64,000 nucleotides of DNA from Rossellomorea aquimaris TF-12 (GTDB lineage: Bacteria > Bacillota > Bacilli > Bacillales > Bacillaceae_B), in assembly GCF_001648555.1 (NCBI RefSeq), contig NZ_LQXM01000024.1, forward strand, positions 62,001 to 126,000. Direction: 5' to 3'. The notes below the pieces were generated by a model, which worked only from the letters and a program-made list of their open reading frames with translations, did no database searches and had not been told where the DNA came from. Positions 15,332-50,381 of this stretch are shown here, one piece after another. How positions within the stretch are numbered: position 1 is the first letter of the stretch; each line of letters begins with the position of its first letter. Made by a program: the position numbers and the translations under genes.

Positions 15332-15427
15332 TTCACTGATATATTCCAGATTCCGCTGATAAAAGTGGCTATTTCGCTGATAAATCAAAGAATTCGCCCG
15401 TAAAAGTCACTATTTCGCTGATATCAT
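15332..15427. repeat. 21-bp-phased intergenic array A (word CGCTGAT)
   Basis: The word YCGCTGAT or a variant recurs with CTGAT-equivalent positions at 15336, 15356, 15377, 15397 (as CCCGT) and 15418, that is every 20-21 bases, separated by AT-rich variable spacers. The rest of the 15171-15470 gap holds nothing else I can identify. Confidence 0.7.
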
Positions 15428-15468
15428 TTTTAATCCTCTTCATGAACACTCGCTAAAGAACGTCCATA

Positions 15469-15499
15469 ACAAAAAAAGCACCAATTCGGCGCTTTTTTC
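15469..15499 (-). terminator. Intrinsic terminator of yhdC
   Basis: AAAAAAGCGCC-gaatt-GGTGCTTTTTTT hairpin on the minus strand, directly after the stop codon. Confidence 0.85.
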
Positions 15500-15805
15500 T
15501 TATTCCTTAACAGAAATATCTAATATTTTTTCGTTTTCCAGATTATGCACTACTCTAACGATTACCTTTTTGGTTGTATTATTTTCTTGCACTGTAAACT
15601 CAAAGGAATCAGCTACTTTGTTCTCTTCCAACTTTTCTCTCCCTTGATATTTATAATCTTTTACAGGCTGTCCGGGGTAATCCTCTTTGATGACAGCAAT
15701 AGCTATGCGGCCAAATTTTTCATAATCTACATTTTGCTCAGCACTTGCGTGACTTGAAACTAATAAAAGAAACACAGTAGAGATTGTCATTATTGCTTTT
15801 TTCAT
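15500..15805 (-). CDS. yhdC: Secreted DUF3889 protein, YhdC-like
   Basis: 101 residues. A Sec signal peptide is clear: MKKAIMTISTVFLLLVSSHASA, with cleavage likely after ASA. The mature part begins EQNVDYEKFGRIAIAVIKEDYPG and matches the DUF3889 pattern (GRIAIxVIxxDYPG, Y-x-G-R-x-x-x, VIVRVVHN). The function is unknown; the protein should be extracellular or membrane-associated. The ATG at 15805 has AGAGGTG 6 bases upstream. Position next to yhdB and azr matches B. subtilis gene order, which is the basis for the symbol. Confidence 0.8.
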   Translation of the reverse strand: MKKAIMTISTVFLLLVSSHASAEQNVDYEKFGRIAIAVIKEDYPGQPVKDYKYQGREKLEENKVADSFEFTVQENNTTKKVIVRVVHNLENEKILDISVKE

Positions 15806-15970
15806 TTTTATCACCTCTATATACTATTCATTACATAGGATGATTTAAAAATGTTATTTTATTCACCCAATAGAAGGAAAACCATTAAATCCTTAATAAC
15901 CAACTTTTTCAGAGAAATAAATATGGTTTTCTCCATACAATATGATTACCCCTTCAGAAGGAGGGAATCA

Positions 15971-16228
15971 ATGTTGAACAAAGTTGATTATGACAGAGCC
16001 TTGTACTACACTCATCGCTCAGAATGGGATAACCTGCTTATTCTCATGGTGAGAACGAAAGATGACCTTCTTTCAAAAAGAATTGAACACTTTTTACATG
16101 CCTATCACTTTTCAAATGAATATACTGATGTAGAGAAAAACCTTTACACTCTATTGAGATATATTGAACATGCAAACTTCACCTTTAGTGTAGAGCAACC
16201 ATTAGAGGAAACCTTTGCAGAAATGTAG
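15971..16228 (+). CDS. yhdB: YhdB family small protein
   Basis: 85 residues starting at the ATG preceded by GAAGGAGGG at 5 bases; the longer frame to 15851 lacks a ribosome binding site. The sequence MLNKVDYDRALYYTHRSEWD followed by LLILMVRTKDDLLSKRIEHFLHAYHF is the signature of the Bacillus YhdB family of unknown function. No signal peptide or membrane segment. It lies between the divergently oriented yhdC and the convergent azr, as in B. subtilis, and has its own terminator. Confidence 0.85.
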   Translation: MLNKVDYDRALYYTHRSEWDNLLILMVRTKDDLLSKRIEHFLHAYHFSNEYTDVEKNLYTLLRYIEHANFTFSVEQPLEETFAEM

Positions 16229-16252
16229 TTAAACAAGAATTCCACCTAACCC

Positions 16253-16293
16253 GCTGATCCAATTAGTTTATACTATTGGATCAGCTTTTATTT
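16253..16293 (+). terminator. Intrinsic terminator of yhdB
   Basis: GCTGATCCAAT-agtttatact-ATTGGATCAGC followed by TTTTATTT. Confidence 0.9.
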
Positions 16294-16303
16294 AAATTTC
16301 AAT

Positions 16304-16335
16304 AAAAAAACTGACAATACATTGCCAGTTTTTGT
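16304..16335 (-). terminator. Intrinsic terminator of azr
   Basis: Minus-strand AAAACTGGCAAT-gt-ATTGTCAGTTTT hairpin with T-tract right at the azr stop codon. Confidence 0.8.
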
Positions 16336-16875
16336 TTAAGTAGAACTATTTTTATGAACCAATTGTCCTGCTGCAATATATAGCTTTAGATCATCCATAA
16401 GGTCTCTTACTAATTTTACGGACTCTTCTAATAAGCCATCCTGTTCATAATCAAAGCAGTGAGGATCAAGAACGAGCTGTTTTGGGATGACATTCGCATA
16501 GACACCACGTCCAACAGTTCTTAAGTTATTAAGACAATTAATCCCTCCTTTTCCTCCACCCGCACATGCAAGAAGAGCAACAGGTTTATGAGCGAATTGT
16601 TCACTACTTAAGAAATCAAGGGCATTTTTTAATGCTCCGCTCATACCGCTATGATATTCAGGAGAAGCTAATAAGACAGCATCAGCATTTTTCACCTTTT
16701 CCTTCAAGTCTTTAACTTCTTTCAATTCCGATTGTTCTGGTTCTCCATTATAAAGAGGCAATGTACCATCACTTAAATCAATGAAGTCACAATTGTACGT
16801 TCGGGAAATATATCGAGAAGCAATTCCCGTACGACCTTTTTTTCTTGGACTTCCATTTATCACGAGGATATTCAT
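16336..16875 (-). CDS. azr: NADPH-dependent FMN reductase / azoreductase
   Basis: 179 residues of the flavodoxin-like NADPH:FMN reductase family. The phosphate-binding loop is [12 protein letters not shown] (residues 6-17). The flavin-contact motif [20 protein letters not shown] is at about 75-94, and ACAGGGKGG follows. Azr (YhdA) is a cytoplasmic tetramer that reduces azo dyes, quinones and chromate; the physiological role is probably quinone or oxidative-stress detoxification. It follows yhcZ by 24 bases on the same strand, matching the B. subtilis yhcY-yhcZ-yhdA order, so it may be co-transcribed with the two-component genes. Confidence 0.92.
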
Positions 16876-48739: not shown

Positions 48740-48747
48740 TGAATCAA

Positions 48748-49404
48748 ATGTATTCATATCCCTATTACAGAACAACAACTAAAGATAATGGGACCATCAC
48801 AGTTTCGGGTGAGCATACACTTTATGTAGCACCCAACCAAGCAGTTGTATCAATAGGTGTAGTAACAAAAAACGAGGATCTTGAAGTGGCTCAAAAACAA
48901 AATCAACAAATCTCCAATAGCGTCGTTCAATCGTTTATTGATAATGGAGTACCGAAAAAAGATATTCAAACCTCCACTTATCAAATCTTTCCACAATATA
49001 ACTATGAAGATGGAAAACAGATTTTTACAGGTTATGAAGTGCGACAAGTTTTTCAGGTAACCATTAATAATATTGAGAGCATTGGAATGATCATTGATGA
49101 CGCCATTAAGATGGGGGCTAATCGAGTTGAAAATATTCAATTTGTAAACTCAGACCCCCAGGAATCCTACCAGGAAGCCCTCTCCCTGGCGTACCAGAAG
49201 GCATACCAAAATGCATTAACATTAAGCAATCAATCCGGGCAACAGCTTAACCCTAAGCCCCATTCCATAACAGAACAAACTACGCCTATAAGTGCTCCCC
49301 TTGTAAGTACAACATATGTCAAAGCCGCCGCTGAAAGCACAAGTGTCCAACCTGGTCAAATCGGTGTTACAGCTATCGTCATTGTTAAGTTTAAAAGCTA
49401 TTGA
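48748..49404 (+). CDS. SIMPL-domain (DUF541) protein
   Basis: 218 residues from the ATG at 48748. SIMPL motifs: GTITVSGEHTLYVAPNQAVVSIGVVTKNEDL, NGVPKKDIQTSTYQIFPQYNY and TGYEVRQVFQVTINNIESIG. Members are secreted or periplasmic oligomers of unclear function; here no classical signal peptide exists. Translation is probably coupled to the collagen-like gene upstream, because the ribosome binding site is poor. A spore-surface role for the pair is inference. Confidence 0.85.
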   Translation: MYSYPYYRTTTKDNGTITVSGEHTLYVAPNQAVVSIGVVTKNEDLEVAQKQNQQISNSVVQSFIDNGVPKKDIQTSTYQIFPQYNYEDGKQIFTGYEVRQVFQVTINNIESIGMIIDDAIKMGANRVENIQFVNSDPQESYQEALSLAYQKAYQNALTLSNQSGQQLNPKPHSITEQTTPISAPLVSTTYVKAAAESTSVQPGQIGVTAIVIVKFKSY

Positions 49405-49434
49405 CCCCGCTCATTTAAATAGATCAATCATTTC

Positions 49435-49468
49435 AGAGGTCCGTCCCTCTTCACAGGGACGGACCTCT
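49435..49468. repeat. Paired 12-mer hairpin, pair 4
   Basis: AGGTCCGTCCCT at 49437-49448 and AGGGACGGACCT at 49455-49466 with AG/CT extension and a 6-base loop. It lies between the convergent SIMPL gene and 49476-50063; no T-tract on either side. Confidence 0.85.
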
Positions 49469-49475
49469 ACCTCTA

Positions 49476-50063
49476 TTAATTTAAGTTCTTTTTTCGTCTA
49501 ACAAAAAAGATGAGCGGGATAGTTAGAAACAATATACCGATAGCCATTTTACTTAGTAGGTTATCAGAGTTGACATGAGTCGTTTCGGATTCTATTTTGG
49601 TTTCTTCGCTTATGTGGAGCTGATCCATTTTCAGGAATTCTCCAAAAACACTTGAATCGCTCTGTTGTATTATGACTCCATCCTTCACCTGAATCATGCC
49701 ATTTGGTCCTCCCACCGGAACCAAAAAGTCATCTTCTTCTCTTTTTTCTAAAAACAACAGAAACTGCCCTCCAGAATTTTGAAACTCTTCTACCCAGCCA
49801 ACATCATATCGATCAATCCCTGCAGTAATTTGATTGGGGGCTGTTCCTCTCAATACTTTCGTTACATTAAATTTCAAACCTAGAAATATTGGATTATTTG
49901 ATTTTATAGATGTTTGGGGCGAAACATCATATTCCCCGATCACAATTACTTCCGCTCTATTTATAACCTGCTGTGGATCTAATTCTACCCAGCTAGTAGC
50001 ACTACCGATATTTGAATAAAAGGTATTACAAACGATCACGATTATAATGATTATACGTTTCAT
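49476..50063 (-). CDS. Exported membrane-anchored protein of unknown function
   Basis: 195 residues from the ATG at 50063 (AAGGGGG upstream); the longer open frame up to 50408 runs through repeat DNA and is not coding. N-terminal signal (MKRIIIIIVIVCNTFYSNIGSA), a beta-rich extracellular domain (SWVELDPQQVINRAEVIVIGEYD, ..GQFLLFLEKREEDDFL) and a C-terminal membrane helix plus basic tail (LLSKMAIGILFLTIPLIFFVRRKK). No LPxTG motif. Role unknown. Confidence 0.75.
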   Translation of the reverse strand: MKRIIIIIVIVCNTFYSNIGSATSWVELDPQQVINRAEVIVIGEYDVSPQTSIKSNNPIFLGLKFNVTKVLRGTAPNQITAGIDRYDVGWVEEFQNSGGQFLLFLEKREEDDFLVPVGGPNGMIQVKDGVIIQQSDSSVFGEFLKMDQLHISEETKIESETTHVNSDNLLSKMAIGILFLTIPLIFFVRRKKNLN

Positions 50064-50084
50064 TTTCTTTCCCCCTTTTAATAA

Positions 50085-50265
50085 TTCAGACGATACCTGA
50101 GAAAGAAAAGTTTCAGTTCGAGGAGGAACTGCGTAGACTTCTGTGGAATTACGGGCGTGCAGAGACCCGGTAGGTAAGATGAGAAGGCTTGCTGCTAGCT
50201 GCAAGTAGTTCACCTCATCATCAAATACGCACGGGTTATCGGAGCCGTTTGCAGAATTCATTGTA
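50085..50265 (+). repeat. Dispersed GC-rich intergenic element, copy F (diverged)
   Basis: Contains gaggaggaactgcgtagact, gcagagacccggtaggtaag, a cttgctgctagctgcaagta core and the tail cacctcatcatcaaatacgc with the cggagccgtttgcagaattca end. Similar order to the 18.9-kb copy. Confidence 0.5.
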
Positions 50266-50308
50266 TTTGTTGCTAAAGAAGATGGATGAATGTCCACATT
50301 TTGCAAAA

Positions 50309-50381
50309 GGCTAATAAATTCCCGAAACTGGCTCAATTTCGGCTCAAAAAGAGGGAAAACCGGCTCATAAGATGGGAAATA
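50309..50381. repeat. 21-bp-phased intergenic array E (word GGCTCA)
   Basis: GGCT/GGCTC at 50309 and 50330 and at 50341 and 50362, each pair 21 bases apart, and GAGGGAAAA (50351) with GATGGGAAAT (50371) 20 bases apart. Two interleaved registers of the same period. Confidence 0.5.

What the first reader, a model, noticed from the sequence alone, without database searches (positions are those of the whole stretch)
15332..50381. A family of six intergenic arrays share a 21-bp period but each locus has its own word
Arrays at 15332-15427 (CGCTGAT), 23399-23490 (TCCGG/GAGCC/GATCY), 31518-31688 (GATCG), 41037-41176 (TCAAC), 50309-50381 (GGCTCA) and 63792-63905 (GAGCCG). Period constant at 20-21, word locus-specific, spacers variable, always between genes. 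I know no established system with this design; short degenerate Bacillus intergenic repeats of similar look exist, but I cannot recall the phasing being described. Possibilities: sites for a nucleoid protein, a homology-seeded slippage product, or a recombination-driven element.
Basis: partly seen in the sequence, partly recalled or inferred. Interest (0 to 1): 0.75.

Follow-up and report, generated by a model that had tools for sequence, protein, structure and literature searches.

The report
Curved 21-bp repeat arrays past terminators
Between genes, often just after the signal that ends transcription, this Bacillus-like bacterium carries short arrays that repeat a word every two turns of the DNA helix, are predicted to curve, and differ in their word between species, so they look like docking sites for a DNA-wrapping protein that has not been identified.

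Summary
The six arrays are real and belong to a genome-wide class. In 824 kb of this genome 25 of 437 intergenic regions carry such arrays (shuffles 0-2); in a further, unseen 400 kb 5 of 235 (shuffles 0). The unit is 20-21 bp, but the stronger signal is helical: word, A/T tract, GC-rich core of free sequence, A/T tract. This gives 10.35-10.5-bp A/T phasing, also against a control that keeps the words, and predicted curvature. Words are not private to loci: about eight families recur, and w2, w3 and w6 share one. Several families have their own leader. The best-studied (leader GTTCACAATTT) usually follows a gene's 3' end in its direction of transcription, including behind rRNA operons. At one orthologous locus eight species keep an array, with five different words among them. 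Within a dialect, words diverge about half as much as flanks; spacer cores drift fast; units duplicate. RNA structure and flanking inverted repeats found no support; coding is unlikely. Best reading: docking arrays for a DNA-wrapping, word-reading protein complex, probably topological marks beyond transcription units. The protein is unknown and the function inferred. Nearest known: STAR elements, the gyrase motif, phi29 p6 sites. I found no description in the papers searched.

The parts
15332..15427 (.). Array w1, word CGCTGATA; words start at 15334, 15354, 15375, 15395, 15416 (the first reads CACTGATA, the 15395 copy CGCCCGTA); beside the 3' end of ORF 15500-15814(-), DUF3889
   Evidence: same word pairs at 3 further loci of the genome
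15466..15500 (-). Terminator-like hairpin of the DUF3889 gene next to w1 (read by eye; not listed by the scan)
   Evidence: sequence
23399..23497 (-). Array w2, family E (ATCGRKCCG); read on the minus strand it starts with the family E leader TGTAAAACGGATCGATT, after the 3' end of the alpha-amylase-family gene 23566-25242(-); 10.5-bp phasing not significant
23510..23552 (-). Terminator-like hairpin beside w2 (read by eye; not listed by the scan)
   Evidence: sequence
31518..31699 (+). Array w3, family E; GATCG/GACCG at 31518, 31539, 31560, 31581, 31601, 31622, 31663, 31684; its leader-like end points away from the helicase gene's terminator (a minority orientation)
   Evidence: absent from the 19 relatives in which both flanking genes were found
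31777..31816 (-). Terminator-like hairpin of the UvrD-like helicase gene 31826-34096(-), GGTCCGTCCCTC type
41033..41176 (-). Array w4, family F (AAAGTTGAAAATAAA on the minus strand), between convergent ORFs 40598-40975(+) and 41216-42865(-); 10.5-bp phasing not significant
41180..41213 (.). Terminator-like hairpin beside w4 (listed on the + strand)
50309..50381 (+). Array w5, family I (GGCTCA/GGCTTATAA); words at 50309, 50330, 50341, 50362, i.e. one half-step of 11 bp; overlaps a TTG-start ORF call 49476-50408(-)
50522..50555 (-). Terminator-like hairpin of 50672-51523(-) (pyrroline-5-carboxylate reductase-like), on the array side
63792..63907 (-). Array w6, family E; words at 63794, 63815, 63836, 63857, 63878, 63899 and a half-step copy at 63867; minus-strand leader ATGTAAAACGGATTGAT
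63699..63728 (+). Terminator-like hairpin of ORF 63024-63695(+), B3/4 domain, on the other side of w6

Best explanation
The arrays are docking sites for a DNA-wrapping protein complex, placed mostly behind gene 3' ends and often right behind a terminator. Shown: a unit of about two helical turns holds one fixed word and one free GC-rich core, parted by A/T tracts, so A/T alternates with GC every ~10.5 bp; words are mostly homogeneous within an array, shared among loci and different between species; several word families have their own leader. Inferred: AT minor grooves face a protein core, a subunit pair reads the word once per 21 bp, the leader nucleates binding, and the wrapped block works as a topological boundary or sink (gyrase-type or a dedicated nucleoid protein) where supercoils pile up behind transcription units such as rRNA operons. 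Growth is by tandem duplication of units; selection keeps word and phase, cores drift, and the word changes together with its reader, giving species dialects.
For: Unit anatomy: of 104 family A steps counted (only shifts of -1, 0, +1 were allowed) 102 are exactly 21 bp; spacer cores carry 0.02-0.64 bit per position with GC 0.41-0.87, flanked by A/T tracts (the high information of the word positions follows from selecting units by word and is not evidence). A/T power at 10.5 bp: 31 family A arrays 9.33 vs 1.10 in dinucleotide shuffles (30 of 31 above mean+2sd), 25 own arrays 6.88 vs 1.25, 80 control regions 1.09 vs 0.99; wedge-model curvature 11.2 vs 4.5 deg/turn (wedge angles recalled). With words kept and only spacer letters shuffled the control is 3.89 against 9.94 observed, 26 of 31 above mean+2sd. 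Five unseen arrays peak at 10.35 bp. Regions with strong 10.5-bp phasing: 16 of 392, shuffled 1.7; 14 of the 16 are word arrays. Leader GTTCACAATTTNGNNCA: 65 exact matches vs 1 for the reversed control, in 10 of 36 genomes of the genus. Place: upstream gene co-directional in 42 of 50. rRNA: two contig ends show 5S, hairpin, then arrays. One orthologous locus holds arrays in 8 of 8 genomes inspected, with five words. Dialects: TTTCGCACATT pairs 28 in own genome and 0 in 30 congeners; TTACGCAAT pairs only in G012 of 36. In G017, 9 of 18 loci lie in the quarter nearest dnaA (P=0.019, post hoc).
Against: No protein has been identified. A gyrase site is symmetric and needs no fixed word, while family A has polarity and a leader. 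Eight or so word families per genome would need several readers or one tolerant reader. Over all 23 orthologous pairs word divergence (0.129) is only a little below flanks (0.169), because dialect changes count. In 26 of 57 leader sites fewer than 3 units matched my word patterns. Words are mixed in some arrays (w2; G004 at the NERD locus). Some arrays run the other way (8 of 50 in family A; w3 and the three family G arrays inspected). w2 and w4 lack significant 10.5-bp phasing. Density is uneven: 25 of 437 regions in one sample, 5 of 235 in the other, and low in other genomes sampled (strict arrays in 3 of 387 regions of eight genomes). Co-direction with genes and nearness to dnaA may partly reflect gene orientation and rRNA position.
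Confidence: 0.42

Rival explanations
1. Operator arrays of sequence-specific repressors or roadblock proteins that stop read-through RNA polymerase behind a leaky terminator; the helical phase only sets co-operative binding on one face.
For: Polarity: the leader faces the incoming polymerase in 42 of 50 family A cases, median 79 bp after the stop codon; two inverted arrays between convergent genes in two cases, each following its own gene (L101/L130 and L110/L117); mostly homogeneous words.
Against: The free GC core and the A/T alternation at 10.5 bp are not needed for roadblocks. No known protein. 9 of 51 family A sites with genes on both sides have the opposite order (6 tandem, 3 divergent).
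Confidence: 0.25
2. Dispersed non-autonomous repeat families of the STAR or BOX type, spread by copying and kept without host function; curvature is a by-product.
For: The w3 array is seen in 1 of 20 genomes; families with leaders at many loci; near-identical copies behind rRNA operons; unit number varies.
Against: Free cores of random spacer pairs agree at 0.28, about chance, and within an array at 0.30, so whole arrays were not copied recently outside the rRNA ends. At the NERD locus an array is present in 8 genomes while its word differs. Flanking arms are no more complementary than cross pairs (14.2 vs 14.0). No transposase search was made.
Confidence: 0.18
3. Neutral slippage: short-tract template switching homogenises words inside an array by homology alone, and words drift neutrally.
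For: Unit duplications with identical or near-identical spacers in G005, G013, G014 and G017; homogeneity inside arrays.
Against: Same word at many unlinked loci and none in congeners, shared leaders, helical A/T-GC phasing carried by the spacers, positional and directional bias.
Confidence: 0.08
4. An RNA element in read-through transcripts: Rho loading site or structured RNA, since sequence turns from GT-rich before the leader to AC-rich after the array.
For: GC skew +0.42 just before the leader to -0.23 beyond the array; array-bearing regions differ from other regions of 250 bp or more (0.31 vs 0.08 at +40..80), and 5 unseen arrays show the same strong G excess at +40..80 (0.57 vs 0.09).
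Against: No RNA structure on average: mean z -0.54 over 57 sites. Helical DNA phasing is unexplained. The unseen arrays show no clear C excess further on (-0.08 and 0.02).
Confidence: 0.07

Closest known systems
STAR elements of Staphylococcus aureus (PMC3532100; outline, abstract and passages seen)
   Same: Short direct repeats in intergenic regions of Firmicutes, interspersed with spacers; loci expand and contract; places differ between species; spacers are locus-specific; function unknown.
   Different: STAR has one 14-bp consensus and at least 40 bp between copies; here 20-21-bp units, several word families, leaders, helical phasing, species dialects.
E. coli gyrase motif (PMC6379681; passages seen, including part of the abstract)
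   Same: About 130 bp, GC content phased every 10.75 bp, read as bending; gyrase sites enriched downstream of transcribed operons, rRNA operons among them.
   Different: The gyrase motif is degenerate and symmetric about a cleavage centre, with no repeated word, leader or polarity; [quoted passage not shown]
Phage phi29 protein p6 recognition sites (PMC10899789; passages seen)
   Same: A dimer per 24 bp, monomer sites 12 bp apart; nucleation by a bendability pattern; DNA wraps a protein core and positive supercoils are restrained.
   Different: Period 24 not 21, no specific sequence, viral; no p6 relative was looked for here.
Phased AT-tracts as structural code (PMC4132750; passages seen)
   Same: A/T tracts in phase with the helix, intrinsic curvature, some intergenic enrichment.
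   Different: Statistical genome-wide signal near 11 bp, mainly in coding regions in cyanobacteria; no word, leader or place.
DNA uptake sequence dialects of Neisseriaceae; BOX elements of pneumococcus; REP/BIME (recalled, not read here)
   Same: Species-specific words; modular head plus repeated middle; extragenic places near 3' ends and gyrase links.
   Different: DUS are single words, BOX modules are near-identical copies, REP are palindromes.

Membership tests
STAR elements | 14-bp repeats of T(G/A/T)TGTTG(G/T)GGCCC(C/A) | tested here: not met
   Words are TTTCGCACATT, GTGGCCCAAT, GGCAGATAAA and others, by comparison with the consensus printed; no scan with that consensus was run
STAR elements | At least 40 bp of recurring sequence between copies | tested here: not met
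   Period 20-21 bp
STAR elements | Intergenic direct repeats at different loci in each species | tested here: inconclusive
   w3 seen in 1 of 20 genomes, but the NERD-locus array is present in 8 of 8 genomes inspected
Gyrase motif | Helical GC phasing over about 130 bp | tested here: met
   10.35-10.5-bp peak; family A arrays of 3-6 recognised units span 63-126 bp
Gyrase motif | Symmetric, with an unphased ~36-bp cleavage centre | not tested
   No matrix was at hand
Gyrase motif | Gyrase binds and cleaves there | not testable with these tools
   needs Topo-Seq or footprinting
phi29 p6 sites | 24-bp dimer repeat with 12-bp bendability pattern | tested here: not met
   repeat is 20-21 bp with a 10.35-10.5-bp beat
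CRISPR array (recalled definition) | Repeats of roughly 23-50 bp with spacers of similar length | tested here: not met
   words about 6-11 bp, spacers about 10-14 bp
CRISPR array (recalled definition) | Adjacent cas genes | not tested
   no cas search was run; Pfam hits of ten window neighbours name none
Known structured RNA | Rfam match or stable fold | tested here: not met
   0 Rfam matches in the window; mean fold z -0.54 over 57 family A sites, though 9 of 57 are below -2

The most novel reading that the evidence does not exclude
A chromosome-wide system of species-specific topological punctuation: several leader-headed, helically phased wrapping arrays stand behind transcription units, rRNA operons among them, each family read by a dedicated sequence-reading architectural protein whose specificity co-evolves with the word, so the arrays of a family change dialect together.
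Probability: 0.3. Interest if true: 0.87.

Novelty: new variant of a known kind. Interest (0 to 1): 0.72.

Why it matters
If the reading holds, bacteria hard-wire DNA architecture beyond transcription units with a written code that drifts by species. That would link transcription termination, supercoiling and chromosome folding, and the known words and leaders make the search for the reading protein a direct pull-down experiment. It also gives a natural case of concerted change of a binding word across loci.

Tried and rejected
RNA structure: mean z -0.54 against dinucleotide shuffles and -1.01 against local shuffles over 57 sites; 9 and 12 of 57 below -2, some perhaps because terminators fall inside the stretch folded. 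Pairing of GT-rich front with AC-rich tail: own pair score 14.2, cross pairs 14.0, n 31. Complementary neighbouring spacers, suggested by one array (L104): mean 4.92 against 5.06 for random spacers, n 99. Coding heptapeptides (21 bp = 7 codons): no frame is free of stops across all dialects; one frame is poor in stops in the two GGC-word types (1 in 273 and 4 in 469 codons), and in two of three forward frames of these types there are fewer stops than in column shuffles, which I put down to avoidance of TpA steps; 20-bp arrays also speak against coding; not fully excluded. Target-site duplication by a CRISPR-like integration of ~10-bp pieces: considered, because it explains equal words and random spacers; set aside because the same words recur at many loci with leaders. 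Phage or plasmid origin: the leader has 1 match in viral contigs; a word pair has 29; these 30 loci were not inspected, so a viral link is not excluded; a 312-base stretch with the rRNA-end arrays has no match in plasmids. Four matches of TTTCGCACATT pairs outside the genus were read and do not look like such arrays. Spo0A-box-like leaders (TGTCGAA, recalled) in families D and G were noted, not tested.

Dropped rows and limits: gene calls are crude ORF calls. Of 57 distinct leaders 50 had an upstream gene within 500 bp, 51 had genes on both sides, and 31 had at least 3 units matching my three word patterns (the others 0-2); only those 31 were used for periodicity. In one search pairs with a BLAST score under 150 bits or flank identity under 0.6 were dropped, and the leader pattern selects conserved leaders, so the leader divergence there (0.005) is not used. 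Own-genome counts include redundancy: contigs C2 and C14 share 2967 identical bases, and rRNA-end copies are paralogues. The relaxed detector was tuned on the first sample; one search is the unseen test and found a lower density. My note says 17 relatives with both genes; the right number is 19. My draft gave 66 leader matches; the table adds up to 65. The script stopped with an error; the loci after L190 were not printed. At the NERD locus only the best 8 loci were read.
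Full report
CHECK. Because they were picked by eye, I tested unselected DNA of the same genome (G000, 4.04 Mb, 30 contigs; window = C23:62001-126000). In 258 intergenic regions exact 6-mers recur at lag 21, 42 and 63 (143, 101, 53; other lags from 6 to 69: 3-37). Strict arrays stand in 9 of 258 regions, in none of 20 shuffles and in 1 of 391 ORFs. A relaxed detector finds 25 of 437 regions in 824 kb (shuffles 0,0,2,1,0), and 5 of 235 in 400 kb not seen before (0 in each of 5 shuffles). 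Divergent regions hold 1 of 79 and 0 of 41.

WORDS. The words are not private to loci. They fall into about eight families in this genome (my grouping by eye): A (TTTCGCACATT, GTGGCCCAATT), C (ACGGATAAA), D (GGCAGATAAA), E (ATCGRKCCG; w2, w3, w6), F (AAAGTTGAAAATAAA; w4), G (CGCTGATAA and TTTCGCnnGATAAA; w1), H (TTGCCATTTT) and I (GGCTTATAA; w5). Members of A, C, D, E and two of the three G arrays start with a leader of their family, for example A GTTCACAATTT, C ATTAGAATCATT..TTCACAATnA, D GTGTCGAAnTTT..AGAATGGCAGATA, E ATGTAAAACGGAYCGAT (by eye; 24 arrays were laid out there, family A).

ANATOMY. Family A was studied most. Its leader is found 65 times exactly in 36 genomes of the genus against 1 for the reversed control, in 10 of the 36, and, with a narrower pattern, in 2 of 299 genomes drawn from the order, both of this genus. 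Of 57 distinct leader sites held, 31 are followed by at least 3 units matching my three word patterns, the others by 0-2. In those counted, 102 of 104 steps are exactly 21 bp (only shifts of -1, 0 and +1 were allowed). Each unit is a word of about 9 bp, an A/T tract, a GC-rich core with almost free letters, and an A/T tract (the sharpness of the word itself follows from how units were chosen). In the GGCACA type the tract is CAAA in 10 and GTTT in 13 of 34 units, as if an A-tract on either strand would do; inheritance of two unit types is an alternative. So the beat is helical: A/T power at 10.5 bp is 9.33 against 1.10 in shuffles for 31 family A arrays, 6.88 against 1.25 for the 25 own arrays, 7.02 against 1.48 for w1-w6, and 1.09 against 0.99 in 80 control regions. 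Keeping the words and shuffling only spacer letters within units gives 3.89 against 9.94, with 26 of 31 arrays above mean+2sd, so the spacers themselves carry the phase. A wedge model (angles recalled) gives 11.2 against 4.5 degrees per turn for family A. In the five unseen arrays the peak is at 10.35 bp. Words at half-steps occur (w5 50330/50341; w6 63857/63867/63878).

PLACE. Of the 57 leaders, 50 have an upstream gene within 500 bp: 42 co-directional, 8 opposite; among the co-directional ones the median distance from stop codon to leader is 79 bp; a run of five T or similar lies within 80 bp before the leader in 33 of 57. In two convergent gaps two arrays face each other, each following its own gene. 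Two contig ends show 5S rRNA, a hairpin with T tract, then two arrays in a row; two further contig ends carry the same arrays but no rRNA match within the locus held. In the complete genome G017, whose contig starts at dnaA, 9 of 18 family A loci (leader match or word pair; not all read) lie in the nearest quarter (P=0.019, post hoc) and 15 of 18 point along replication (terminus assumed opposite). Sequence turns from GT-rich before the leader (GC skew +0.42) to AC-rich beyond the array (-0.23); regions of 250 bp or more without arrays lack this turn; the five unseen arrays repeat the G-rich front but not clearly the C-rich tail. I have no good explanation for it.

EVOLUTION. w3 stands between a helicase gene's terminator and an aldo-keto reductase gene: own gap 457 bp with the array; no array in the 19 congeners in which both genes were found (18 gaps of 86-243 bp, one of 1344 bp; 5 further loci of the genus lacked the pair). 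This reads as a gain in this species, though loss elsewhere is possible. By contrast, the gap between a pyridine-nucleotide oxidoreductase gene and a NERD-domain gene holds an array in all 8 genomes inspected (the best 8 loci): AGTGGCACAA in G014, G017, G013; AGTGGCCCAAT in G005, G007; TTACGCAAT with variants in G012; a mix around GTGGAACAAG in G004; TTTCGCACATT in the own genome. The leader is exact in five, altered in two (G013, G012), not recognised in one (G004). Across genomes, TTTCGCACATT pairs occur 28 times in the own genome and in none of 30 congeners, TTACGCAAT pairs only in G012 of 36, GTGGCACAA pairs in 6 of 31 and not in the own genome, GGCCCAA triplets in own, G005 and G007 of 31. 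In 23 orthologous pairs divergence is 0.169 in the 70 bp before the leader, 0.129 in words, 0.425 in free cores, 0.217 after the array; part of the core value may come from misaligned units. Adding up the eight of those rows that compare genomes of one dialect (G010/G013/G014/G017 among themselves, G005 with G007) gives words 20/218, flanks 89/507, cores 37/99 (my sum; the pairs are not independent). Unit duplications with equal or nearly equal spacers are seen in G005, G013, G014 and G017.

MECHANISM. Shown: phase, leader, place, dialect, lower divergence of words, unit duplication. Inferred: that a protein wraps the DNA, with AT minor grooves inward, and reads the word once per two turns; that wrapping matters for supercoils behind transcription units. 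The nearest working models are the E. coli gyrase motif (10.75-bp GC phasing over 130 bp; sites downstream of operons) and phi29 p6 (a dimer per 24 bp, bendability, restrained positive supercoils). Gyrase alone would not need words, leaders or polarity, so a dedicated reader, alone or as a partner of gyrase, is more likely. A roadblock array against read-through is the main rival. Family A polarity favours the rival; helical phasing carried by the spacers favours wrapping.

KNOWN OR NEW. STAR elements are the nearest repeat family and fail on consensus and spacing. Ten searches of the held open-access library were made; six aimed at such arrays, two at curvature and gyrase (56, 57), one each at STAR and p6 (40, 92). 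None listed a paper that by title and start of abstract describes such arrays; only four papers were opened (PMC3532100, PMC6379681, PMC4132750, PMC10899789), in passages. Subscription papers are not covered, so a prior description cannot be excluded. The organism's name was not determined. The family A leader is confined to this genus in the genomes searched; strict arrays in 80-125-kb samples of other genomes stand in 1 of 43 regions (G012), 1 of 50 (G017) and 1 of 49 (G027, another family of the order, word CGCCGATAA), and in none of G003 (41), G030 (45), G033 (42), G034 (60) and G032 (57). A 10.5-bp scan of the same eight samples gives 0-2 regions each.

Noticed in passing
window 13019-13424: A 126-bp unit in 3.2 tandem copies (GAAGAAAAGCGGAAGGGC..GACAAGCATAAGACGAG); similar units stand beside the helicase gene of relatives (L048, L049, L051, L055), so it looks like a dispersed GC-rich repeat family.
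   Followed up: no
window 31777-31816; also relatives' loci and beside several arrays: The terminator-like hairpin GGTCCGTCCCTC..GAGGGACGGACC recurs at several loci of this genome and in the same gap of many congeners, as if one terminator sequence had been spread.
   Followed up: no
window 48353-48414: A 30-bp repeat (2.1 copies) inside ORF 48326-48739; by my reading it codes a glycine-rich repeat.
   Followed up: no
G000 contigs C2 and C14 (L119, L098): 2967 bp identical in both contigs, with a listed contamination of 9.56: the assembly holds redundant pieces.
   Followed up: partly
family A arrays, e.g. L151, L217; also L043:17956: Strand composition turns from GT-rich before the leader to AC-rich beyond the array, in array-bearing regions; cause unknown.
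   Followed up: partly
L036:12560-12600, L009:4543-4568, window 15322-15335: Leaders of families D and G contain TGTCGAA or close variants, which resemble the Spo0A box (recalled; sequences).
   Followed up: no
L207:18099-18270 (G027, another family of the order): A CGCCGATAA array of the same look, four exact CGCCGA units at 21 bp.
   Followed up: no
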